64,000 nt of DNA from Calothrix brevissima NIES-22 (GTDB lineage Bacteria > Cyanobacteriota > Cyanobacteriia > Cyanobacteriales > Nostocaceae), in contig NZ_AP018209.1 of assembly GCF_002367995.1 (NCBI RefSeq), forward strand, positions 62,001 through 126,000. Reading direction: 5' to 3'. Position 1 is the stretch's first letter. Each line of letters opens with the position of its first letter. Below are positions 8,971-25,645 of this stretch, piece by piece. The notes under the pieces were generated by a model, which saw nothing but the letters and a program-made list of their open reading frames with translations, made no database searches and had not been told where the DNA came from. Both the position numbers and the translations under genes were made by a program.

Positions 8971-9865
8971 TCAAGTTGCAGCGAATCTTGTCAACAATTC
9001 TTCACGGCTTAATTGAATGCATAGAGGCGTAAATTCTTCTGGTGGTAACTGTAACAACCTATCAATAACTCTTGACAGTTCCTCATCTACTGAACCAAAT
9101 CTTACTTTAAGCAAATTTTCTACAACTTCGCGTCGTTCCTCCAGTCTTGCCTGCTGTTTTGTAGTTTCTTCCCATTGTTGATATGCTTGTGACAAGTTCA
9201 TGATTAACTCCTGGTCATCTTCTGTAAGATTTTCTGGCTGTTGAATTGAAACAATCCGCCAATTGGTAATCAGTTTCAAAGTGTTTTGTCGTACCAGATT
9301 GCTTTGGGGTAGTGCCAATAATTCACGCTCCAGCTTGGCGTTGAGTTTCTCCTTTACCTAATAGCCTTAACCACAATGTTTCCGAAGTCACTGGCAACTG
9401 ATTAATCGCCACTATCGCCGTTCTCAACGAGTCAGCTAGAAAATACACTCCAGTTGTCCAGGTTTCTAGGTCTAGTTTAGCGCCAAAACTGTTAAGCAAA
9501 CTTTCTGAAGCTGATGGTGCTAAAATCCATAATCGTGCAAGATTATCCTCTGGTAAGCTCGCATCCTCTCGCTTGGCTTTTCGTTGTGAGTCTGCCATGA
9601 CTGTAAAGACCTTCAGAAGACAGTTGCGTACTTCTGTTTTCGTTGGTTGATTGCGAAAGGGTTCTAGCAAAGAAATTCCTACAGCTATTCTGCCAAGTAA
9701 CCCCAATGACTGTTGATTAGCTTGGGGTGTTGGTATGGCAGAAAACAAAATATCTACTTGGCGAATTTCATCGGTTATTTCTTTATTGACTTCCACCTTT
9801 CCTAAAGGAGAAAGTAATTCCTCCAAGAATTGCTTTGAAAACTGATCGTAAGGTTTTCTAGTCAT
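8971..9865 (-). pseudogene. DUF4351-family protein, frameshifted
   Basis: Two adjacent reading frames together make one protein of a family common in cyanobacteria (DUF4351 C-terminus, often with a degraded PD-(D/E)XK/Rpn-like N-terminus). The first part runs from ATG 9865 through KQFLEELLSPLGKVEVNKEI and LWLRLLGKGE. It then hits a stop at 9323. The other frame continues without a gap as EKLNAKLERELLALPQSN and ends with the typical LQLPPEEFTPLCIQLSREEL. The shift lies near 9335-9342, in an AAAGGAGAAA run, and a single base accounts for it. It may be a real mutation or a sequencing error. The first frame's in-frame TTG at 9916 is not needed. Confidence 0.75.
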
Positions 9866-13223: not shown

Positions 13224-13350
13224 ATAAAAAAACTACGGTAAAAGCATATGTAGTCCCTCGTTTCAATCAAATTCGGTTCTAGTGGCGAATGCTAACTTGC
13301 TCATTCGTTTGATTTCGTCACGAAATTATTTGATTACAGAAAAAGGGAAG

Positions 13351-16350
13351 ATGTCAAAATCAGCAAAGAAAAAAATGGCAACCAGTCGCGAGGTTTATGA
13401 TCGCATTATCTGGGATGTACGTCTTGATAGCAGCGCTTTTGTTGTCGGTTATATTGAACGTCTTGCATCTACAGGAATCAGAGAAAAACCTCTAACACAA
13501 TGGGCTACAGATGGGGATATTCCTTGGCATCGCATCCGCTATATCCGTTGCAAAGACGTGGTTGTTTGGGATCGGGAACAGCATTTAGATTTAATTTCCA
13601 GTGGAGAGTTACCTGCGGCGGCTTGGAAAAACGAAACTAGAGAAAATACAGGGGGAAAAGTTATCACCGTATTAGATAGCACAGCAATATTTACTCCGCG
13701 ACCCGTTTATAAATACGATATTCAAGGTTGGCAAGCAAATACACAAAAAGCTGCGTCTGTCAATTTAGAAACTTTGACAATTGCTAGTTTTAACGTGCTT
13801 TGTGACCTCTACGACAAGGAGAAAATCGCAACTGAAAAAAGATTACCAGCAATTGTTGAGCAGTTACGTCAATGTAACGCAGATATCATCGCCATACAAG
13901 AAGCGACACCAGCTTTAGTAGAGTTACTTTTATCGCAAACTTGGGTACGCAATTATTATATTTCCGAATCCAGCACAGCCGAAAAGGTGCGACCTTACGG
14001 TAATTTATTATTGTCGCGTCTGCCTTTTACACTCGTTGAACATCAATTTTCTGGACACAAGCGGGTATTGGTAGGGAGTTGTGAAATTAACGGTCAATTA
14101 TTGCACATTGCAGTCGTGCATTTAACCAGCGATTACGCTCAAAATGCCCTAGAAAAACGCCAGCATCAACTATCTACCATAGTTGCATATCTACAAACTC
14201 TACCAGGAAATAGCTTAATAGCTGGTGACTTCAATACGCGAGGTAACGAACAAAAAGAGATATTAATGAGTGCTGGATATGTCGATATCTGGCAACAACT
14301 ACATCCAGATGCAGCAGGTTATACATTTGACCCGCAACGTAACGCCTTAGCGGCGTTGATGAGTTTAACAGGAATACCAGTTAGGCTCGATCGCATTTTA
14401 CTGCTCAATTCAAACCATGATTGGCAAGCGCAGTCTATTGACTTATTCGCTTGTGAACCAATAGCAGATACAGAGGAGAAAATTTATCCATCAGATCATT
14501 TTGGTCTTCGTGCAGTTCTAAGAGCAAGAAGACAGGGAGAAACAGAAACTAGACGACGTACAGAGAAGCCTGCATTTCTCAATCCGAGTGATGTGTCTCC
14601 TCTATCTACAGTCCGTCCAGTTTATCAAAGTGCTGTAGTTGTGATTCCGCCAGACAATGTTTTACCTGCGATTCAAGTCATCCGTCAGCTTTATGATGCC
14701 AGAGTAGAGCGTTGGATGGCTCACATTAATTTACTTTACGGTTTTCTGCCAGAATCCTATTTTGCCGAGGCGGTAGACATTATTGCGCCTGCACTTGCTC
14801 AACTACAACCATTTCAAATTACCTTAGCCGACTTCCAAACATTTACACATCGCAAAAGTTCTACAGCTTTGTTGCGTCCTGTTGTCCAACCAGAAAACGC
14901 ATTGCATGAGTTACAGACAGTACTGCAAAATCTGTTTCCCCAATGTAACGAACAAAGCAGCAAAACAAAAGCAGGTTTTACACCCCACCTCAGCGTCGGA
15001 CAATTCCCCAGTCCGGAAGCAGCCTTGGCTGAGTTACCGCAATGGCATCCAGTTAGTTTTACAGTTGACTCTATCGCCTTAATTAGCCGTCGCAATGATG
15101 AGCCTTTTGCGGTGAGACATATTGTGTATTTGGGAGAAAGTGGAGTCACCCATTCTTCCGAATTGGGGGAGTTGGTTAATAAATTGGAACCTGAACTATC
15201 TCCGGCACAGCAATTACAGCGTGACACAGTTTTAGAAGTCGTTACTCAAGCTTGTGCAGAATGTTTGGGTTTTCAACCATCACTACGGTTATTGGGTTCG
15301 GCGCGTCTTGGCATACAAAGTCCCGACAGCGATTTGGATGCTGTGTGTGTGATTCCCAATTATTTATCTGGGGAAGCTTTTCTAGTTAGCGTCCAAGAAC
15401 GTTTGCAAGGATTGTGCCAAACTCAACTAGTATTAGATGCACGAGTCCCAGTACTGCGCCTGCAATTAGAAGGAATATCCTTAGATTTACTTTACGCAAG
15501 GACAGAAAACTACCAATTGGCGAGGAAAAATCCGCAAAACCTTGACCCAATTAGCTTAAAAGCTATTATCGGTTGCTGGGAAGCAGATTTAATTACTGAG
15601 GTAGTTAGTAAATATGTATCGCTAGACACCTTCCGGCAGCTATTGCGAGCAGTACGCGCCTGGGCTAAAGCCAGAGATATTTACGGTAATGCTTGGGGTT
15701 TCCTGGGTGGTTTCTCCTGGGCGTTACTCTGCGCTTTTTGTTGTAAATCTGACCAAAAATCAGAAACAAGCCTAGAGAAATTACTGGCTAATTTTTTCCA
15801 AATTTTGTACCATCATAATTGGCAACAGGCGATTGCACTTACAGATGTAGGTAGACAATATCAGGTACAATCCCCAAGAGACTGGTTACCTGTAGTCACA
15901 TCAATAAAACCATGTCAGAATACTGCTCGTAATGTCACCCGTTCTACTGCACAGATAATCCAAAGCGAATTTGCTAGAGGTGCAACACTGACTAAGCAAA
16001 TTTTAGCTGGTGAACAGAAGTGGACAGCTTTATTTGAAACAATCGAGTTACACCAAGAATCAGAAATTTTCTTGATATTAAAGGTGAGTAATCAAGATGA
16101 GGATGAGCTAGAAAAATGCTGCGGTATTTTAGCAGGTTACATCGTTGGTTTAATTATTCAGCTTGAGCAACTTGGTATCTTTGTGCGACCTTGGACAGGT
16201 ATTCAAAAGATGCAGAATACAGCGCGTTTAGTATTGGGTTTGCATCTTGTTGCTAATTGTCAAAGCACTACCGTAGAACAGTTAGTGAGAGATTTTTTAT
16301 CACAGTTAAATTGTCAAAATACTAGTTTTGAGGTGATGCTTTCAAATTAA
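13351..16350 (+). CDS. Four-domain RNA end-processing fusion: MJ1316/DUF504 - EEP - 2H phosphoesterase - poly(A)-polymerase-like
   Basis: 999 residues from the ATG at 13351 (GGGAAG just before it); a GTG at 13282 would add 23. Domains in order follow. MJ1316/DUF504, proposed in comparative studies to recognise RNA cyclic-phosphate ends: about 10-75, with REVYDRIIWD and HRIRYIRCKDVVVWDRE. Endonuclease/exonuclease/phosphatase: about 141-390, with SFNVL, AIQEA, GDFNTRG and SDHFGL. 2H phosphoesterase: about 425-595, with H458 in HINLLYGF and H546 in PHLSVGQF. Nucleotidyltransferase of the poly(A) polymerase type: from about 620, with GSARLGIQSPDSDLDAV near 649, then LRAVRAWAKARDIYGNAWG. Every catalytic motif looks intact. 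It probably trims, heals and extends damaged RNA ends. It is a single intact gene whose last 4 bases overlap, in convergence, the end of the 2H-like gene at 16347. Confidence 0.88.
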   Translation: MSKSAKKKMATSREVYDRIIWDVRLDSSAFVVGYIERLASTGIREKPLTQWATDGDIPWHRIRYIRCKDVVVWDREQHLDLISSGELPAAAWKNETRENTGGKVITVLDSTAIFTPRPVYKYDIQGWQANTQKAASVNLETLTIASFNVLCDLYDKEKIATEKRLPAIVEQLRQCNADIIAIQEATPALVELLLSQTWVRNYYISESSTAEKVRPYGNLLLSRLPFTLVEHQFSGHKRVLVGSCEINGQLLHIAVVHLTSDYAQNALEKRQHQLSTIVAYLQTLPGNSLIAGDFNTRGNEQKEILMSAGYVDIWQQLHPDAAGYTFDPQRNALAALMSLTGIPVRLDRILLLNSNHDWQAQSIDLFACEPIADTEEKIYPSDHFGLRAVLRARRQGETETRRRTEKPAFLNPSDVSPLSTVRPVYQSAVVVIPPDNVLPAIQVIRQLYDARVERWMAHINLLYGFLPESYFAEAVDIIAPALAQLQPFQITLADFQTFTHRKSSTALLRPVVQPENALHELQTVLQNLFPQCNEQSSKTKAGFTPHLSVGQFPSPEAALAELPQWHPVSFTVDSIALISRRNDEPFAVRHIVYLGESGVTHSSELGELVNKLEPELSPAQQLQRDTVLEVVTQACAECLGFQPSLRLLGSARLGIQSPDSDLDAVCVIPNYLSGEAFLVSVQERLQGLCQTQLVLDARVPVLRLQLEGISLDLLYARTENYQLARKNPQNLDPISLKAIIGCWEADLITEVVSKYVSLDTFRQLLRAVRAWAKARDIYGNAWGFLGGFSWALLCAFCCKSDQKSETSLEKLLANFFQILYHHNWQQAIALTDVGRQYQVQSPRDWLPVVTSIKPCQNTARNVTRSTAQIIQSEFARGATLTKQILAGEQKWTALFETIELHQESEIFLILKVSNQDEDELEKCCGILAGYIVGLIIQLEQLGIFVRPWTGIQKMQNTARLVLGLHLVANCQSTTVEQLVRDFLSQLNCQNTSFEVMLSN

Positions 16351-16901
16351 ATTTCTTGCCAATAATTTGAATCACATTGTTCACCATTGCATTGGCAAGC
16401 TTTGGATGGTTCTCTGACAAGCCAAAGTTTCCAATCTTTCTTCCTGAGAGCATTAAACTGTGCCTTGGCTACTTCATTATGTTCATTGCTGGGAATGTTT
16501 AACGTAATATGCCAAGACTTACCGTGCTTTTTACCTTTTATTCTCTCAAATGTCTGTTGTTTTAATTTAGCAGCTAATTTATCTAAAAGGTCGCTGTTGA
16601 AAGAGACTCGATAGCCTAAATCATTACCATTTTTATCCCGCTTTGTTTCAATCCAATAATCTTTGCCCTCAACCTTTTTCCGGAAGCTATAGGGATGAGC
16701 ATTGTGAATCTTCTTCCAGATATTATTCAAAATGGTTTTCTGGCTTTTTTGGCAAGCATGAGAATTACTAAATCCAGTAATTGTCACATGGTAACCACCC
16801 CATTTGAAATTTTCTTCATATCCTGGTGAGAGATAAACAGCATATTTATGCTCGCGTGGTGGTAAGCATTCTTTAGGGATGTCCTCGTTAATGGAAGCCA
16901 T
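16347..16901 (-). CDS. 2H phosphoesterase-like protein
   Basis: 184 residues with the two-histidine signature of 2H phosphoesterases (LigT/2',5' RNA ligase-like fold): H38 in YHVTITGF and H131 in WHITLNI, each on a predicted strand. The C-terminus carries a short Cys cluster (CQCNGEQC). The pair of HxT motifs is seen; membership and an RNA cyclic-phosphate or nucleotide 2',3'-cyclic substrate are inferred. It lies 9 bp after the dynamin-like gene, so it is the last gene of the operon 20700-16347. It overlaps the convergent RNA-repair gene by 4 bp, and that gene has its own 2H domain. Confidence 0.7.
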   Translation of the reverse strand: MASINEDIPKECLPPREHKYAVYLSPGYEENFKWGGYHVTITGFSNSHACQKSQKTILNNIWKKIHNAHPYSFRKKVEGKDYWIETKRDKNGNDLGYRVSFNSDLLDKLAAKLKQQTFERIKGKKHGKSWHITLNIPSNEHNEVAKAQFNALRKKDWKLWLVREPSKACQCNGEQCDSNYWQEI

Positions 16902-16910
16902 TTTCTACTG

Positions 16911-19670
16911 TCAGTTTGTAATCGGTGGTTTCCAACTGTCGAGTATTTCTCGACTAAGTAATAATTTATGAATATACTTACTAACTTCGATTCTTTGAGT
17001 TTCTAAACCAGTAACAACTTCATCAGCTTGTAATTCCTTCCTCGCTCGTTCTTTAATTAAATAATCAAATTCAGACTGGAACCTATTAATATAGTCATCA
17101 ATTTGCTTCTCGCCTTTACGAAAATCTTCTGAAACCTGTTTTTCAATAACGCGCTGAAGTAGTGCTAAGTTTCTCTGAACTTGTAAATCAATATTTTGTT
17201 GAATACCTTGAGAAGTTTGCCGTAAATCAATTTCATAAAAATATACTGTTTCTTCGTAAGGAACATCTACTTCATATACTTTATCTGATTTACAGCATCG
17301 GCTTTTTCTCTTATATTCTTTTCTATTTCTGGTAACTACTTCTTGTTGATGTTGAATCTTTGCATCAATACCAGAAAAATCAAAGTCAGGAAATTGAATA
17401 GGATTATTACTTATGTCTATCTGTAATTCTTTTTTAATGGCATCAGAAAGCTCATCTGAAACAACTTGTATTTCTTCTTTTATCTTTTGAACTAATTCTT
17501 CACGAATTTTTGTTCCTTCTCTAACCAATTTATCTTGAGTATCTAACCAAAAATTCTGTATTAAGGGAGTGCAGTATTCATTAATAGTTTTACCTATCTT
17601 CTGTGCATCAGTTTTACTATTAACCCTAATTTTATAAGAATCTGGACTGGCAGAGATTTCAAATAAAGAACTAAATTTATCCCGTATGAAAGTTAAAAGG
17701 TTCTGACTATTATTGTGTTTTAAATTTTTCTGAGATTGATTTTTTGCTACTTTCTCTATTTCCAATTCTATGTGTTTCTTAGCAGTTTCAGCAAATTTAT
17801 CAATCTCTTGGCTGAAAGTTGTAATTAGTATTCTTTTTTGCACTTCTACAGAATTTTTTATATTGATCACCTTATTTTTAGCCAAATCAGCATCTTTTTT
17901 GTACTCTTCTATTTTTTGTATTAACACCTCAAATTCTAACTGCCAGCCTCGGATATCTGTAATAAATATTTCATCAATAGCTGTAGCAGCTTTATATAAT
18001 TCGTTTAAAACATCGCTTAATAAATTCCAACCGGAATTTTGAGTAATAGTTTGGATTACCATTTCTTGGATTTTGGGAATACCGCTATCATTTAAAGCTA
18101 ATGTTGCTACTTCTTCTGGCAAGGGAATAATACGTCTCCCTCTTTCATCTCTTTCAGCATATCTAGCACTAAAAAAATCTTCAAAGTCTTTAATATGAGA
18201 ATTTGTTGCTTTATCTTGCTGAATAAGCTTTGATAATAAACCTTTCCATCCACTAGCTGGGTAAATAACTGGTTCTGGAATGCCAAAATCAATTAAATTT
18301 TCTTTTAAAGACTTGATAACATCTGCAATAGGTCTGTCTCTCTCTGCTTTTTTATCTACCTTGTTAAGGACAAAATAAATTTTACCTGTACTTTCTGATA
18401 AAAAATCCTTACGCTTTTCTATTAAGTCTTGGAGTAATTCTAAATTAGTATCGGCTTTAAATGCAGCGTAATCTAAAATAAATAATATGGCATCACATGT
18501 TCTAAGAGCTTCTAAGGCAGTCTGCTTTAAGGAAGTAGTGTTAAACGAAGCAGATTCCCATTCATTGGGGCCGGGGGTATCTACTAATGTAAAACCTGCC
18601 AGCGATGGCATTGTATTAATGGCTTCTATAGGATGTTCTAATTCAAAGCGTGTAGTATTATCTTCATTAGATTTAGCTCGAATCTCATGGGTACGCTCTA
18701 AAAATTTCTGTCGAATTTCGTTTGCTTCACCTTCTATCAAAACTATAGGTTCTCGTTTACCTGCTTGATATTCCAATAGCCTGGGAGTTTTATCTGCATC
18801 TATTGGACGGATGTCTGTGCGGCAAACTGTACAAGCCTCTGCTTCGCTTGCCAAGACATCTGCACCAATTACAGCATTCAAGAATGTGCTTTTACCAGCC
18901 TTCATTGCTGCAATTACAGCAACTTGATATTTCTGTTCTACTAATGCTTTTAAAACTTTTGCAATATCATCTTCAATGTTTTGCAATCCCTGAGCCTTAT
19001 TTCCCTCTTTTAGCCGTTCGTTACGGAGTTGTTTTAAGTAACTCAAAAAGCTTTCGCCTACATCTCGAATTCTGTTGTAGCATTCTTGAAATTCTTGAGA
19101 AGGTTTATTGGTAGAGTGTGAATCCATCTGATGTATTTTTATTAATTCTTCTATGAAAGGTGAACTTTGAGCTAATTCGTCATTGCTTTGCTGACAGTTT
19201 ACTGGATTTAAAATCATTTCTCTTTGAACAGCAACTGTAAGATTACGTACATAGTAATCACTAGGTACAAAGATTAACTCTTCATTGATTTGGCAAAGAA
19301 CTTTATTAGTAAAATCTACTGCGTTGATAAATTCCTTCAAAGCAGCTTCTGTTGGTTCTCGATCAATATCCCACATTAGAGAAATTAGATTATTCTGTAA
19401 TCTAAGTGCTAAACGCAAGCAATCTTTTTCTACTTCATCTAAGGCGTGCTGGCAAGTTAAATCTATAATCTTTTTTTTGCTTTTAGCAGCTAATTTGCGG
19501 TATTTCTTCTCTAACAAAGCATATTTTTTTGTTAATTCATTGGCGACTTGTCTGTGATGTTTAGCGGCTTGTCTGTTTTTTTCGCCAGCAGCATGAGCAG
19601 TAAAAGCACCTGCAACAGCACCAGCTGCTACACCTAAAGCACCAAACACAAAAGGCAGTATAAAAATCAT
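16911..19670 (-). CDS. Dynamin-like large GTPase
   Basis: 919 residues. An N-terminal hydrophobic, Gly/Ala-rich segment (FVFGALGVAAGAVAGAFTA) should anchor it to a membrane. The GTPase domain has P-loop AAMKAGKST (about 258), the DTPGP switch II motif (about 363) and NKVDK (about 436). Long helical and coiled-coil regions follow, with a Lys/Arg-Cys-Cys patch (KRKSRCCKSDK) and a basic tail. This is the bacterial dynamin-like layout, usually linked to membrane remodelling or phage-response membrane repair. It is 19 bp downstream of the HNH-like membrane protein gene and 9 bp upstream of the 2H-like gene, so it is central to that operon. Confidence 0.85.
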   Translation of the reverse strand: MIFILPFVFGALGVAAGAVAGAFTAHAAGEKNRQAAKHHRQVANELTKKYALLEKKYRKLAAKSKKKIIDLTCQHALDEVEKDCLRLALRLQNNLISLMWDIDREPTEAALKEFINAVDFTNKVLCQINEELIFVPSDYYVRNLTVAVQREMILNPVNCQQSNDELAQSSPFIEELIKIHQMDSHSTNKPSQEFQECYNRIRDVGESFLSYLKQLRNERLKEGNKAQGLQNIEDDIAKVLKALVEQKYQVAVIAAMKAGKSTFLNAVIGADVLASEAEACTVCRTDIRPIDADKTPRLLEYQAGKREPIVLIEGEANEIRQKFLERTHEIRAKSNEDNTTRFELEHPIEAINTMPSLAGFTLVDTPGPNEWESASFNTTSLKQTALEALRTCDAILFILDYAAFKADTNLELLQDLIEKRKDFLSESTGKIYFVLNKVDKKAERDRPIADVIKSLKENLIDFGIPEPVIYPASGWKGLLSKLIQQDKATNSHIKDFEDFFSARYAERDERGRRIIPLPEEVATLALNDSGIPKIQEMVIQTITQNSGWNLLSDVLNELYKAATAIDEIFITDIRGWQLEFEVLIQKIEEYKKDADLAKNKVINIKNSVEVQKRILITTFSQEIDKFAETAKKHIELEIEKVAKNQSQKNLKHNNSQNLLTFIRDKFSSLFEISASPDSYKIRVNSKTDAQKIGKTINEYCTPLIQNFWLDTQDKLVREGTKIREELVQKIKEEIQVVSDELSDAIKKELQIDISNNPIQFPDFDFSGIDAKIQHQQEVVTRNRKEYKRKSRCCKSDKVYEVDVPYEETVYFYEIDLRQTSQGIQQNIDLQVQRNLALLQRVIEKQVSEDFRKGEKQIDDYINRFQSEFDYLIKERARKELQADEVVTGLETQRIEVSKYIHKLLLSREILDSWKPPITN

Positions 19671-19689
19671 AGAATTTTTGACTAATTAT

Positions 19690-20700
19690 CTAAGAACTAG
19701 GAAGGAGGTAAGGCATTTGAGAATCAGGCAGTAAATTACTATCTGCGGAGGTGAGTCCTAAAGATTGAGCAATAGCAATTGATTCACTTAAACGTTGCAT
19801 AGCTCCTTGGATACCTGGCGCAATTGGACGATTTGTAATTTCGTGATTAATTGCTTCTGCTTGTGCCAAAAATTCTAGATTTTTCTGATGTTCATAAATC
19901 AGTTCGTTCTCAATTTCTTGTAATCTTTCTAATTCTTGCCGAGTTAAAGATTCATAATAAGTTTTTACAGCCTGCTTATGATCGTCAAGGATTCTGAAAA
20001 ACTCGTAAACCATACCTGTGGCACCAACAACAGCTAAAACTGGTGCTGCTGCGCTTAACGCGATCGCAATTGGTGGACAAGCTGCTGCTACTGCTGTGGT
20101 TGCAAATGCCGTTACACCCCCAACAGCACCACCTATGGCGGTATCCTTTAATGTTGTGGTAGCCGCTTCCTGTGGAGAAATTTCCCCTCGGACTACACGT
20201 AAGCCATTAGTTAAAAGTGAAAAAGGTATAGTTGTAATTGCACCTACAGCAGCCCCCACAGGTGCAGCTTGAAGCCCAGCTTTTACAGCACCAGTTAAGT
20301 TATCAAAGTGGTATTTAGCATTTAGCCTCATTTGCTCAATGCTAGTCATGGGTTTACCACCACGGGCTACATTGTCTTTGCCATTCTCCCATTTGATATT
20401 GTTGGGATGATTAGAACCACCCTTGCTATGAGGCTTGATGTGACTAGCGTGCTTATCAGATAGGTAATGTTCGGCATTATTAGCCGCAGATTTCCCATCA
20501 ATACCTGCACGTTGAGAAGGGGGAATCTTCTCTAGCATTTTTTGGGCTTGCACCCTGGTTCTTACGGGTTCACCAGGCCTAATCCCACCTTTGTACATTT
20601 TACGTGCTGCACTTAAAGGTAAATCCTGCAATTGAGCGTGCTGAACTTTAGTCGCGGCAGCTGCATTGATAACAGAATTACGATAGGAATCGTCCGTCAT
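19690..20700 (-). CDS. HNH-like motif protein with membrane segments
   Basis: 336 residues. An HNH-like block at about 84-113 has His84, His87 and His91 in HASHIKPHSKGGSNHPNNIKW, ending near NGKDNVARGG. That is the HIxPxSxGG...NxxW pattern of HNH nucleases of the toxin-like group. Two hydrophobic Gly/Ala-rich stretches follow: around VKAGLQAAPVGAAVGAITTI (about 138-160) and a longer one at about 190-235. The C-terminus is a coiled-coil helix (LTRQELERLQEIENELIYEH). The layout suggests a nuclease-type effector held at or inserted into a membrane. It is the first gene of the operon with the dynamin-like GTPase. No classical immunity gene is adjacent; HNH activity is inferred from the motif. Confidence 0.65.
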   Translation of the reverse strand: MTDDSYRNSVINAAAATKVQHAQLQDLPLSAARKMYKGGIRPGEPVRTRVQAQKMLEKIPPSQRAGIDGKSAANNAEHYLSDKHASHIKPHSKGGSNHPNNIKWENGKDNVARGGKPMTSIEQMRLNAKYHFDNLTGAVKAGLQAAPVGAAVGAITTIPFSLLTNGLRVVRGEISPQEAATTTLKDTAIGGAVGGVTAFATTAVAAACPPIAIALSAAAPVLAVVGATGMVYEFFRILDDHKQAVKTYYESLTRQELERLQEIENELIYEHQKNLEFLAQAEAINHEITNRPIAPGIQGAMQRLSESIAIAQSLGLTSADSNLLPDSQMPYLLPSS

Positions 20701-21196: not shown

Positions 21197-23599
21197 TCAT
21201 GCTGCTTGTGCAACCAATTTAGTGAAGCCAAACATACTAAACAGCCAGTGATACCATTCTGGATGAGTAATAAATATATTTAGAGCCGACTCCAAATTAA
21301 CATCTAAGTCTCTGTTCTGAATGTCGATAATTGTTTGATAAGTCAAATCCAAACAAATTCTATCTTGTTTTTTGAATAAGACAAACTTACCATTAGATGA
21401 ATTATTCAGTTGAGCTATTCGTTCTTTACCCACCTTGCCCGTGACTTGCGTTAAACGCTGATCACGAAATAAACCAAAGCGGTCATGACGATGTAAACTT
21501 ACTAACTCATTAAAATTACCAATTCTGCTCGTAAACGATATACCATCTGGTGCTATCTGGAGAAACCCTATGACATAATTTTTATTATCAGTCTCAACTA
21601 CAATATGCTCTGGTAAAACCTTCTTGCCCAAGCGATAATGGGTTAATTTAATAGGTTTAATGTGGTTAAAAGCTTCAGCAATAGTCTTTAGCTTGCCTAT
21701 GTCATCATAATCAGAAATAATAGGAGTATTTTGATAACTCTGTTCTAATTCAGCCTTTTTTAAATTTAAATATTCGAGAATATTGTGTGATATCTGCGGG
21801 TTTACTGGGACAACATCAGGTACAAACTGCTGACAGAGTTTTGTCAGGTCAACCGAGCTTGGTTCTTGTATTGCTTGCACCAAACTAAGAAATGCTTCGG
21901 TCAATTTTTGCTGTTGCTGCTGAACAACTCGTAATTGCTGTTCTAGTTTTTCTGTAGTGTTGAGTTGGTGCAGATTTTCTTTGATAGATAGCAGTGGGAT
22001 TTGACGAACTCTATAGTTGTAATAGTCTGCTGCTCGATTCAAAACCGCTCGAATCGGTTTTTGTCCGAGAATATCTTCTAAATCTTCTGGAGTGAATAAT
22101 AGTTCTAGGGGAATATTTACAGTCTGAAGCTTTACCTGAAGAATTGCTTTAAGTTCTGTTTCATCTGGCTGACGTAAGTGGATTTGGTACTGGGATATTC
22201 GACCAATAATTGAGTTGTCAAAACTAGTTTGAAACTGTTCCCATCGGTCAGGAAACATATTTAGGATAACTAAGCTGTTGGGGACATGAGTAAAAATTTC
22301 TTTGATGGCTTCCCCAAAGTTCAACAATATTTCTCGGTTATGCGACAATCCTAATCCTTCTAGTTGATCAAAGATGATAATTAGAGGCTCATCCAAAATC
22401 GACAGTTTAGCTAAAACTGAAATCGCTTCTAGTGAAAATGCTTCTTGGCTGAGGTCTTCGCCCCAGTTTGGCAAACCCACTAATTCCGCTTCTTCCACAG
22501 ACAAGATATTGGCGGCTAACCAACGGGTAGCGATATCTTTTCGCCGAGGGTCAGTATAACTGCAATATTTAACAATTCCTTTGAGGATAGTAAGAGCAAA
22601 GCCACCAGAGGAGTAATGACCTGCCCACCACTCACTAATCCGTTTCTCAATATGCTGCCAGTAATCTCGTTTGCGTTGAGTGCCTTCACCCCCAAGCGCA
22701 TCTAGATTTTTGTCTTGCAGGGCTTTGAGAATCTCTTGGTCTTTCTGGGATGTGATCCGGAAACTAAGAATTTTACAAAAGCTGTTAATAATCAAGTAAT
22801 CTAATTGAGTAGAAGAGCCAACCCGCTCTATCAGCGACTCCAAAATGCGGCTGTATATGTGATACAGCACTGATTTAGGATGGTTTGGCTGACGGATAAA
22901 CAGCAGTCTATTACTGTATAGTCGCTCTTGGGCCAGTCTCATCATTAAGTGAGTTTTACCAGTTCCTGGTTCGCCAATAACTACTGCTCCTTTACTCTGT
23001 CGGTTGGAATCTAGTTTGATATCCGTCAAAATTGACTCAAGAATCAGGTATTCTTGGCGGTAAGTACCAAAGTAATCAGGATGAGTTTGAAACGGAGTGT
23101 CCACCCTGCTTCCACTAAATGGATTTGGATGCTGTTTTAATTGTTCGACCATTAGCCGCCGATAAAGATGGTAGGTGAACTGGGCATCATATCGGGCAGC
23201 ATGAGCCATATCGCGGATAAAGTAGCGGTTGTCCACCTGTAAATTGAAATGCTTACTCAGGTATTCCAGAGAATGGCTTTCTAGCTCTGGCCAAACAGTT
23301 TTGGCTCTATCCCAAGTACACTCAAATTCTAGTTTGGGAAACACTAGACCCACTCTGCGAAAACTGGACTGAAGTATCTCAATATCATGCTTGGCGTAGT
23401 GACAGACTATTCTCTTTCCTTGCACAAGACTCAAAAACTCTGTCAGTAGGGTTTTCAGACTTTTGAGGTTAGGCAGATTCGTGTTGTGATTGGGATAGTC
23501 ACTAGAGAAGCCTTCAAAAATCACCCGGCCTTGACTATCTACAATCGCTAATTCTCTTAATTCTGGTTTACCTTCAGTATCGAGAACTACAAAGTCCAT
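21197..23599 (-). CDS. DEDDh exonuclease fused to an AAA-type ATPase
   Basis: 800 residues. The first ~150 are a DnaQ-like DEDDh 3'-5' exonuclease: D7 and E9 in VLDTEG, D72 in YAKHDIEIL, and His133/Asp138 in AHAARYDAQFT, all five active-site residues kept. A P-loop ATPase follows, with Walker A GEPGTGKTH (about 209-217) and Walker B LIIIFDQLEG. The rest includes Gln-rich and strand-rich parts and no known nuclease tail. It is a nucleic-acid-degrading enzyme probably gated by nucleotide binding. It stands alone between the dynamin operon and the DUF262/DISARM operon, both minus strand, in a defence context. It could be an abortive-infection or anti-phage enzyme; unknown to me as a named system. 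Confidence 0.75.
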   Translation of the reverse strand: MDFVVLDTEGKPELRELAIVDSQGRVIFEGFSSDYPNHNTNLPNLKSLKTLLTEFLSLVQGKRIVCHYAKHDIEILQSSFRRVGLVFPKLEFECTWDRAKTVWPELESHSLEYLSKHFNLQVDNRYFIRDMAHAARYDAQFTYHLYRRLMVEQLKQHPNPFSGSRVDTPFQTHPDYFGTYRQEYLILESILTDIKLDSNRQSKGAVVIGEPGTGKTHLMMRLAQERLYSNRLLFIRQPNHPKSVLYHIYSRILESLIERVGSSTQLDYLIINSFCKILSFRITSQKDQEILKALQDKNLDALGGEGTQRKRDYWQHIEKRISEWWAGHYSSGGFALTILKGIVKYCSYTDPRRKDIATRWLAANILSVEEAELVGLPNWGEDLSQEAFSLEAISVLAKLSILDEPLIIIFDQLEGLGLSHNREILLNFGEAIKEIFTHVPNSLVILNMFPDRWEQFQTSFDNSIIGRISQYQIHLRQPDETELKAILQVKLQTVNIPLELLFTPEDLEDILGQKPIRAVLNRAADYYNYRVRQIPLLSIKENLHQLNTTEKLEQQLRVVQQQQQKLTEAFLSLVQAIQEPSSVDLTKLCQQFVPDVVPVNPQISHNILEYLNLKKAELEQSYQNTPIISDYDDIGKLKTIAEAFNHIKPIKLTHYRLGKKVLPEHIVVETDNKNYVIGFLQIAPDGISFTSRIGNFNELVSLHRHDRFGLFRDQRLTQVTGKVGKERIAQLNNSSNGKFVLFKKQDRICLDLTYQTIIDIQNRDLDVNLESALNIFITHPEWYHWLFSMFGFTKLVAQAA

Positions 23600-23803: not shown

Positions 23804-25645
23804 TCACTCTTCATCATCTGCGACATCACTAATCGCCGAATCATCCACTGCTAATACAGGCTTGCCCATAGCCGCTTCAATTTTGGAAAGTATCATTCGT
23901 TGGCGCGATGCCATGAAACCCTCAAAGTCGTCTTGTCGCAGTGTTATTGCGTCGATTTGATGAGTTGCCAGAATTGCATTCATGCCTGCATCGTCTAGCT
24001 GAACACTGTCATGCTTTTGAAGCTGAACCAGATATTCGCTTGGAGCTTTACCGCCAATCATGCGATTTGCTTTAAACGATATGGGAGTTTTGTTGAGGAT
24101 AGAGTTATAGCGAGATGCGGGAATACCCTGCTTGTCACACCAACTCTTGGGAAAAATGTGATGAATATCGAGTTTGCGTTCCTCCCAATCGGTTTCATCT
24201 AAATCTCGTATAGCAACTTTCCAGAAGAAGTCTTGAGCGCCTTCACGCTGAACTAAGACATTGATACCTTTATATGCAGCGCTATTGCGGGAACGTAAAG
24301 TACCTAACCGAGTAGGCTGGAAGTTAGCATCCCTAACAGTCGAAGGTTCTTCCTTGCTACCCTCAATCCAGTCTATAAGTTCCTGAATGTCCAAAGCTAT
24401 ACGGGTTTCAACTGCCCCGCCGTAAAGTTCACCGAGGATACCACACCAAAACCAACGAGCGATTTTGTCATAGATTTTCGGTTCAAGCCAGCGATCGCCA
24501 AGGAATGCCATGACCACGGCAAGCGGAACAAGTTGGGTACGGTAGGGTAAATCGTTGGTAGAGAAAAACGATTCTTGACGTAGAAATTTAGCTGCTTTCC
24601 AATAACCTTGCGTAAGAGGCTGTTTCCATTTTTGGTAAGCATCTAGAGGTAAAGACAAAACTGCTTCGCGCTTTGCAGTAACACCTGTTACCTGCTTGCC
24701 AGTTTTACCCGCCTTTAAGTCTTCCCTTCGTTTATCCCAAGTATGCAGTAGTGTCAATCCTTGAAGAAACTCAGTAGGTTGAACCTCGCGTAACAAACTT
24801 TGCTTTCTTAGATGCGGTTGAGTACCTTCGATACCTTCGTGAGCATTACCAAACCATTCATCCCGCAGGTTTACATTATCAATAGCGTAAGTGGCAGTCA
24901 TGAGTTCAAATACCGAGAGGGAAACACCTCCGGTATTGACTTTCTCAAAGACAAGGCAGACTGCTTCTTTCTTGTTTTCCTTGCTGAGTTCAATGATCGG
25001 AATGTTATAGTTACGAAATTCATTCACAACCTGTTTACGGAATTGAGCATATCGCCCGAACTTTGTAACGTCGTAAGCAAGCAATCCTTCCTCCCACTCA
25101 TCAGAGTTAAGGAGCTGGTTACAAGGAAAGTAAAAGTTCTCATATTCCTTTTCTGGAGTGCTGAGATCCAGCTTTAAATCACGTCCAAAATTTTCTCGCA
25201 CAGTCCGATCAGTGTCAACGCTAATAATCGCACTTTCATAATGCTCTTTTCCTAATAGGGCTGTTTCGATATCAATGTAGTAATAGCGATGAAGTAATTT
25301 TTTCTTGTAGTCACGAGTTTGTACTGGTTGTGTAAACATTAACACTTGCGTTAATGAAGTCAGTCTCTGTTGCCCATCAAGAATCAACTTTTCTAATTTG
25401 CTAAGTATTGCTTTTGTTAGCTCTACTCCTTCAATGGGACGCGCTTTGAACTTAGCATCACCGCCTGCCTCTAGTAACATGATTGCTCCGACAGGAAAGG
25501 CACGAGCAATACTTACTAACAGAGAGCGGATATGTTCATCATCCCAAACCCACCCTCGTTGAAAATCGGGCAGTTGAATTTTGCCAACTACGATATCGTT
25601 TAGTAAAGTGGCTAGACTTGTCTTGGTAGAATCAAATGTAGACAT
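23804..25645 (-). CDS. DUF262/DUF1524 (GmrSD-like) restriction-type protein
   Basis: 613 residues. The N-terminus has the ParB/DUF262 signatures LPDFQRGWVW and ILDGQQRLTSL (nucleotide-binding/hydrolysing domain). The C-terminus has the HNH-type DUF1524 motif HHIFPKSW with RYNSILNKTPIS. That is the two-domain layout of GmrSD-type, Type IV restriction enzymes, which cleave modified DNA. Both signature motifs look intact. It lies 19 bp downstream of drmC on the same strand, so it is probably transcribed with DISARM. The combination suggests an added layer against modified phage DNA (inference). Confidence 0.85.
   Translation of the reverse strand: MSTFDSTKTSLATLLNDIVVGKIQLPDFQRGWVWDDEHIRSLLVSIARAFPVGAIMLLEAGGDAKFKARPIEGVELTKAILSKLEKLILDGQQRLTSLTQVLMFTQPVQTRDYKKKLLHRYYYIDIETALLGKEHYESAIISVDTDRTVRENFGRDLKLDLSTPEKEYENFYFPCNQLLNSDEWEEGLLAYDVTKFGRYAQFRKQVVNEFRNYNIPIIELSKENKKEAVCLVFEKVNTGGVSLSVFELMTATYAIDNVNLRDEWFGNAHEGIEGTQPHLRKQSLLREVQPTEFLQGLTLLHTWDKRREDLKAGKTGKQVTGVTAKREAVLSLPLDAYQKWKQPLTQGYWKAAKFLRQESFFSTNDLPYRTQLVPLAVVMAFLGDRWLEPKIYDKIARWFWCGILGELYGGAVETRIALDIQELIDWIEGSKEEPSTVRDANFQPTRLGTLRSRNSAAYKGINVLVQREGAQDFFWKVAIRDLDETDWEERKLDIHHIFPKSWCDKQGIPASRYNSILNKTPISFKANRMIGGKAPSEYLVQLQKHDSVQLDDAGMNAILATHQIDAITLRQDDFEGFMASRQRMILSKIEAAMGKPVLAVDDSAISDVADDEE

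What the first reader, a model, noticed from the sequence alone, without database searches (positions are those of the whole stretch)
16347..20700. Three-gene operon: HNH-like membrane protein, dynamin-like GTPase, 2H phosphoesterase-like protein
Three minus-strand genes are separated by 19 and 9 bp. The last overlaps a convergent RNA-repair gene by 4 bp. Products are an HNH-motif protein with membrane segments, a bacterial dynamin and a 2H-type RNA/nucleotide phosphoesterase. Membrane, nuclease and RNA-end functions in one operon next to DISARM fit an undescribed defence or membrane-damage system.
Basis: partly seen in the sequence, partly recalled or inferred. Interest (0 to 1): 0.82.

Follow-up and report, generated by a model that had tools for sequence, protein, structure and literature searches.

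The report
Membrane nuclease with swappable partner protein
Some cyanobacteria carry a two-gene unit: a membrane-bound protein that looks like a DNA-cutting enzyme, and a membrane-bound partner whose working end is swapped between strains (dynamin, actin-like, pigment-sensing and other domains), which looks like an undescribed defence-type module.

Summary
The arrangement is real and the coordinates exact, but the third gene does not belong. The conserved unit has two genes. Gene 1 (336 aa) is a predicted HNH (bba-metal) domain followed by a hydrophobic, helical part. Gene 2 begins with a constant ~145-aa module (one hydrophobic segment plus coil, 'NMOD') followed by an exchangeable C-terminal domain: dynamin here; elsewhere ParM/actin-like, four GUN4 domains, FGE/C-type-lectin fold, Zn-ribbon-like, GTPase-less dynamin, or none. 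Of 42 named loci, 29 have an intact HNH gene and all 29 have NMOD next. In 217 Nostocaceae genomes, 35 of 35 full-length NMODs lie 3' of an HNH gene, some of these interrupted. Two Nostoc loci are 96.6% identical over 3.5 kb up to codon ~148 of gene 2, then carry unrelated C-termini. The '2H' gene has two HxTx motifs but no relative in 373 genomes, and only 1 of 29 loci has any close downstream gene. Most likely a membrane-tethered nuclease is controlled by a partner with swappable sensing/scaffolding domains, probably in defence; activity and defence role are inferred, and defence-gene linkage is unproven. My searches found no description of the pair.

The parts
19690..20700 (-). Gene 1, HNH-TM protein, 336 aa; constant component
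   Evidence: close homologues
20326..20643 (-). Predicted HNH (bba-metal) domain, residues 20-125; S86 H87 N101 E105 N110 R113 invariant in 34 of 34 loci
   Evidence: fold, by prediction; conservation
19693..20325 (-). Membrane and helical part, residues 126-336 (hydrophobic about 145-163 and 188-235)
   Evidence: hydropathy; low-confidence helices
19221..19670 (-). NMOD: constant N-terminal module of gene 2, residues 1-150 (hydrophobic 1-26, then coil/helices)
16914..19130 (-). Exchangeable C-terminal domain of gene 2, here a dynamin-like GTPase (about residues 181-919; GKS, DTPG and NKVD motifs visible in the sequence)
16347..16901 (-). '2H-like' 184-aa ORF, 9 bp downstream; NOT part of the conserved unit; relatives not found

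Best explanation
A two-gene, membrane-based module. Gene 1 is a membrane-tethered HNH nuclease, the effector. Gene 2 is a membrane-anchored partner: its constant ~145-aa N-terminal module docks on gene 1, and its exchangeable C-terminal domain senses or scaffolds. Dynamin and actin-like ATPases would report or assemble on perturbed membrane or incoming filaments or DNA; GUN4 would report tetrapyrrole state; FGE/C-type-lectin-fold domains would bind ligands. Assembly or ligand binding releases or positions the nuclease against DNA at the membrane, for example during phage or plasmid entry, or else kills the cell. Shown here: the near-obligatory pairing, fixed order, co-divergence, mostly purifying selection, the precise swapping of the C-terminal domain, and (by prediction) the HNH fold. 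Inferred: nuclease activity, direct contact between the two proteins, triggering, and the defence role.
For: Pairing: 29 of 29 named loci with an intact HNH ORF (of 42 loci in all) have NMOD next on the same strand. In 217 Nostocaceae genomes 35 of 35 full-length NMOD matches lie 3' of an HNH-TM gene (interrupted in G517, G518, G521, G643, G647), and 33 of 35 close HNH-TM matches (E <= 1e-100) have NMOD; the two without are truncated or fused (tables compared by eye). Gap median 19 bp, n=36. HNH and NMOD distances correlate, r=0.853 over 34 loci; 0 of 999 permutations reach it. Swapping: L078/L083 are 96.6% identical over 3,473 bp up to NMOD codon ~148, then ParM versus GUN4; 10 of 15 pairs compared (loci reused) lose homology at 1455-1478. 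On the HNH tree of 38 rows, 9 C-terminal states need 12 changes, the least possible being 8. Domains: Pfam ALP_N, MreB-like_C, FGE-sulfatase, GUN4 E 2.3e-131. HNH fold. GUN4 and FGE/FGS domains are described as parts of cyanobacterial conflict systems (PMC7159879, PMC8195603; passages read). Precedent for a membrane-bound anti-phage nuclease: SNIPE (PMC13190303; abstract and passages read). A B. subtilis dynamin gives phage resistance (PMC8844932; search listing and start of abstract).
Confidence: 0.45

Rival explanations
1. Plasmid-type maintenance or segregation module: a membrane anchor (NMOD) holds an actin-like or dynamin motor, and the HNH-TM protein acts as an addiction toxin or DNA-processing protein.
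For: ParM/StbA-type C-terminus is the second commonest (9 of 36 loci alone, 1 more in tandem). Copies sit on conjugative plasmids of Nostoc N6 and Trichormus, and the window contig is 208 kb. Strict toxin-antitoxin-like pairing.
Against: Also on chromosome-size contigs (5.7 Mb with two copies; 8.95 Mb). GUN4, FGE and dynamin are not known segregation motors. The C-terminus is swapped or missing while HNH+NMOD stay.
Confidence: 0.17
2. Photosynthetic or thylakoid membrane maintenance system unrelated to defence, in which the HNH fold has been reused as a structural domain.
For: GUN4 fusion, PsaE fused to the distant HNH-TM family, only cyanobacterial records in the genome scan (a pattern scan for close relatives), Ser in place of the usual acidic residue.
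Against: Patchy distribution: strong NMOD in 7 of 386 phylum genomes and 31 of 217 family genomes. Plasmid location. H87, N101 and N110 invariant in 34 of 34.
Confidence: 0.15
3. The first reader's three-gene system, in which a 2H phosphoesterase works with the HNH and dynamin proteins on RNA or nucleotide ends.
For: 9-bp spacing suggests co-transcription. Two HxTx motifs. Convergent overlap with an RNA-repair gene that has its own 2H domain.
Against: 2H gene found in 1 of 373 genomes, no plasmid or viral hit, no meaningful similarity to the neighbouring gene with a 2H domain. Only 1 of 29 relatives has a close downstream gene.
Confidence: 0.05

Closest known systems
Kaur/Burroughs/Aravind conflict systems of multicellular prokaryotes (VMAP ternary, EAD, bDLD, TRADD-N systems; PMC7159879, PMC8195603)
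   Same: Cyanobacteria among the main carriers; interchangeable sensor/effector domains beside constant modules; GUN4 and FGS domains among the interchangeable parts; a NucA-type HNH nuclease in one system (passages read)
   Different: The word dynamin has no occurrence in either main text. No NMOD or HNH-TM pair in the passages I read. Core NTPases of those systems were not looked for here.
SNIPE (PMC13190303)
   Same: Membrane-bound nuclease with diversified membrane/adapter regions (abstract and passages)
   Different: SNIPE is one protein with TM, DUF4041 and GIY-YIG. Here there is an HNH fold, a longer hydrophobic region and a separate swappable partner.
LeoABC / bacterial dynamin systems (PADLOC LeoBC; PMC4159319, search listing and start of abstract)
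   Same: Dynamin-like GTPase; weak LeoBC profile matches to both genes (E 6.3e-5 and 1e-4)
   Different: Dynamin is optional here; the constant parts are HNH-TM and NMOD.
Polymorphic toxin systems (PMC3482391, search listing and start of abstract)
   Same: Constant N-terminus with recombining C-terminal domains
   Different: The swapped domains here look like sensors or scaffolds, not toxins. The nuclease is the constant part. No recurring downstream immunity-type gene was seen in 29 loci.

Membership tests
HNH / bba-metal nuclease superfamily | Beta hairpin plus helix metal-finger fold | tested here: met
   By prediction only. (83-87, 102-106, 107-113, high pLDDT); 26 of 50 rows shown are named HNH though E >= 0.2; weak
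HNH / bba-metal nuclease superfamily | Catalytic His, structural Asn, metal-binding Asn/His | tested here: met
   H87, N101, N110 in 34 of 34; role assignment by analogy, recalled
HNH / bba-metal nuclease superfamily | Acidic/His metal ligand before the catalytic His (common, not universal; recalled) | tested here: inconclusive
   Ser86 in 34 of 34
HNH / bba-metal nuclease superfamily | Nuclease activity | not testable with these tools
   -
Bacterial dynamin-like proteins | Dynamin_N GTPase domain with intact nucleotide motifs | tested here: met
   (E 9.2e-17); GKS, DTPG, NKVD read in the translation
2H phosphoesterases | Two HxTx motifs | tested here: met
   Residues 38 and 131
2H phosphoesterases | Family profile match or 2H fold | tested here: inconclusive
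   No Pfam match, no relevant NCBIfam or PDB sequence match; model pLDDT 45.9
DISARM | Match of the three genes to Drm models | tested here: not met
   no Drm match at E 0.01 for any of the three
SNIPE | DUF4041 plus GIY-YIG in one protein | tested here: not met
   No such Pfam match at E <= 1 for the three proteins
LeoABC dynamin system | LeoA plus LeoBC dynamin pair | tested here: not met
   Only weak LeoBC profile matches; gene 1 has no GTPase match in Pfam
VMAP/EAD ternary conflict systems | MoxR-vWA or VMAP core with EAD pairs | not tested
   No profile search for these cores in the flanks

The most novel reading that the evidence does not exclude
A previously undescribed class of membrane immunity in cyanobacteria. 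A constant membrane HNH nuclease is gated by an anchored adaptor. The adaptor's C-terminal input domain is exchanged by recombination at one fixed junction, so the same nuclease is wired to membrane-remodelling GTPases, actin-like filaments, tetrapyrrole sensors or lectin-fold binders.
Probability: 0.35. Interest if true: 0.86.

Novelty: new variant of a known kind. Interest (0 to 1): 0.72.

Why it matters
The functions of most bacterial dynamins are poorly known. Here a dynamin is one of several plug-in domains next to a predicted membrane nuclease, which gives a concrete, testable role. Interchange of two unrelated NTPases (dynamin and actin-like) at the same junction is unusual and suggests a common physical signal, such as membrane or filament assembly. 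If defence is confirmed, it adds a membrane nuclease with swappable inputs to the immune repertoire of cyanobacteria, and explains proteins now annotated 'hypothetical' or 'ParM/StbA family'.

Tried and rejected
2H gene as third component: rejected as a conserved part. Its relatives were not sought in the named genome contigs or phage collections. Its single-sequence model was too poor to search. Dynamin as the constant core: rejected. The dynamin clade also exists as a solitary gene (14 loci read, none with an HNH match and no NMOD seen in the ORFs printed). 13 of 14 cassette dynamins form one clade (quick tree), so capture happened once or twice rather than in every locus.

DISARM or defence-island linkage: not established as general. 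Flank scan at E 1e-15: 109 of the 150 flank proteins printed (the rest left out for size or near-duplication) matched 40 PADLOC families, among them methyltransferases, SoFic, DRT-type RT, Druantia/BREX helicase-like and a caspase, mostly one protein each in the 25 rows shown. The control (75 of 77 flank proteins of solitary dynamins) matched 35, of which 20 of the 25 shown are PD-T4-6 models. The outputs give families, not proteins per locus, so enrichment is unproven.

PDB sequence search with the HNH profile: one irrelevant weak match. Foldseek against PDB: no E below 1. Phage records: no match. Viral contigs: 1 locus, L118. PHROGs: only weak matches, one an HNH endonuclease family at E 0.013. 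The genome-contig scan used two conserved peptide patterns, so it reaches close relatives only.

Literature searches that showed no description of the pair in their listings: (open-licence PMC papers only).
Full report
Observation. The three minus-strand ORFs, their 19- and 9-bp gaps and the 4-bp convergent overlap are exactly as described. The window is bases 62,001-126,000 of a 207,970-bp contig of a 9.26-Mb genome whose contig 1 is 8.5 Mb, so the contig is probably a plasmid. That is inference.

The conserved unit. In the phylum sample, close relatives of gene 1 sit directly upstream of a gene that shares the first ~145 residues of the window's dynamin protein, and in several of them only these. 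I call this N-terminal module NMOD: one hydrophobic segment at 1-26, then a coil/helical stretch. A pattern scan of named genomes returned 42 loci, all from cyanobacterial records. In 29 of the 42 the HNH ORF is intact and NMOD is the next clear gene on the same strand (in L094 and L095 after a longer gap). In 5 the HNH ORF is interrupted but NMOD follows (L101, L103, L108, L109, L114). In 8 there is no NMOD, and there the HNH gene is truncated, interrupted or fused. In 386 phylum genomes, 10 strong NMOD copies in 7 genomes all lie in HNH loci; 6 further matches are weak, E above 1e-4. In 217 Nostocaceae genomes I compared the coordinates. 35 of 35 full-length NMODs (31 genomes) lie 3' of an HNH-TM gene, which is interrupted in five genomes (G517, G518, G521, G643, G647). 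33 of 35 close HNH-TM matches (E <= 1e-100) have NMOD; the two exceptions are truncated or fused. Six partial NMOD matches in five genomes lack an adjacent HNH match; one protein is a 627-aa coil-expanded NMOD-ParM, the others are fragments, short ORFs or lie at a contig end. Median HNH-to-NMOD gap is 19 bp in 36 loci, with outliers of 198 and 423; HNH and NMOD distances correlate (r 0.853 over 34 loci, 0 of 999 permutations as high). dN/dS of the HNH domain was computed for 12 pairs: 10 give 0.03-0.41, one gives 0.78 with few changes, and one pair is identical there.

The unit usually ends with gene 2: of the 29 intact loci only L083 has a same-strand ORF of 70 aa or more within 60 bp downstream, and no family among the first three downstream ORFs recurs in more than 3 loci.

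The exchangeable end. Among 36 loci the C-terminus is dynamin in 13, ParM/actin-like in 9, Zn-ribbon-like in 4 (one Pfam match below cut-off, otherwise my reading of CxxC pairs), short or other in 4, FGE-sulfatase in 2, and GUN4 in 1. Dynamin with most of the GTPase domain missing occurs in 3, twice in tandem with a second NMOD protein that bears ParM or dynamin (one search counts; clusters; Pfam, which scanned representatives). In three loci labelled dynamin, NMOD and dynamin are separate ORFs (L089, L093, L100). Nostoc NMS9 (L078) and NMS8 (L083) are 96.6% identical from 2 kb upstream to position 1473 of the cassette (NMOD codon ~148) and then unrelated, ParM against GUN4. Of 15 pairs compared (loci reused), 10 lose homology at 1455-1478, roughly NMOD codons 138-148; one of these ten, L098/L118, has no C-terminal domain on either side. 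L056/L057 break at the end of their second NMOD, L081/L084 and L068/L107 run about 130 bp further, window/L076 share the dynamin throughout, and L094/L095 are rearranged. L080/L081 are homologous again downstream. On the gene-1 tree (38 rows) nine states need 12 changes, where 8 is the least possible and shuffles average 21.5, so most loci inherit their type and a few exchange it. Thus whole C-terminal domains are exchanged at one junction while HNH and NMOD travel together. The dynamin itself belongs with solitary cyanobacterial dynamins; 13 of 14 cassette dynamins form one group, so it entered once or twice and was then passed among cassettes.

The third gene. The 184-aa ORF has two HxTx motifs with spacing rarely seen in shuffles (106 of 100,000). 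It has no relative in 373 genomes, 72,556 plasmid records or the viral contigs at the sensitivity used. It is a local neighbour, possibly co-transcribed.

Surroundings. Copies occur on conjugative plasmids (Nostoc N6 pNPM2 and Trichormus variabilis ATCC 29413 plasmid A; in the latter a gene annotated as DNA-phosphorothioation-associated lies close by), on chromosome-size contigs and on one viral-collection contig, where a short NMOD is followed by a caspase-domain gene. Proximity to defence genes is suggestive only.

Mechanism. I think gene 1 is a membrane-tethered nuclease and gene 2 its anchored controller, with an interchangeable input. The pairing, the swap and the predicted HNH fold rest on results above; activity, contact and trigger are inference. 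GUN4 and FGS domains are described as parts of cyanobacterial conflict systems (PMC7159879, PMC8195603; passages). SNIPE shows that a membrane-bound nuclease can cut phage DNA at entry (PMC13190303; abstract and passages). DynA of B. subtilis shows that a dynamin can limit phage infection (PMC8844932; listing and start of abstract). Rivals are plasmid maintenance and a photosynthetic-membrane role.

Novelty. No family in Pfam, NCBIfam or PADLOC covers gene 1 or NMOD at a curated or convincing score (the best NMOD match is YtxH, E 3.4e-5, below its cut-off), and eight literature searches listed no description. The principle of interchangeable domains around a constant core is known; this core and the dynamin/actin exchange are, as far as I could search, new.

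Noticed in passing
window 13282-16350 (+): A 1022-aa fusion of MJ1316, endonuclease/exonuclease/phosphatase, 2'-5' RNA ligase (2H) and poly(A)-polymerase-like domains, an RNA-repair type protein.
   Followed up: no
window 21197-23599 and 23804-25645 (-): A DEDDh-exonuclease/AAA ATPase gene and a GmrSD_N (DUF262-type) gene between the cassette and DISARM; the exonuclease gene has relatives on Nostoc and Tolypothrix plasmids.
   Followed up: partly
L031:1129-2181 (+): A photosystem I PsaE domain (Pfam E 4.7e-32, residues 2-61) is in one 350-aa frame with a distant HNH-TM domain.
   Followed up: no
L118:7036-9511 (+): A short NMOD gene followed after 79 bp by a 634-aa caspase-domain gene on a 113.6-kb viral-collection contig.
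   Followed up: no
L056:6723-7568, L057:6107-6964, L094:8213-9166: NMOD fused to dynamin stalk-type helices with most of the GTPase domain missing; twice next to a second NMOD protein.
   Followed up: partly
L172:3033-4916 (-): A diverged NMOD with extra coil repeats fused to ParM, without an HNH gene in the 11 kb held.
   Followed up: partly
L134:9045-10574 (+): The record's annotation starts this ParM/StbA gene at locus position 9474 and so misses the NMOD; the open frame starts at 9045.
   Followed up: yes
G000 contig 3, 139220-139807 (L071:6906-7949) and contig 2, 133100-133540: Two distant HNH-TM paralogues in the window's own genome; the contig 3 copy has no NMOD match in its 17-kb stretch.
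   Followed up: partly
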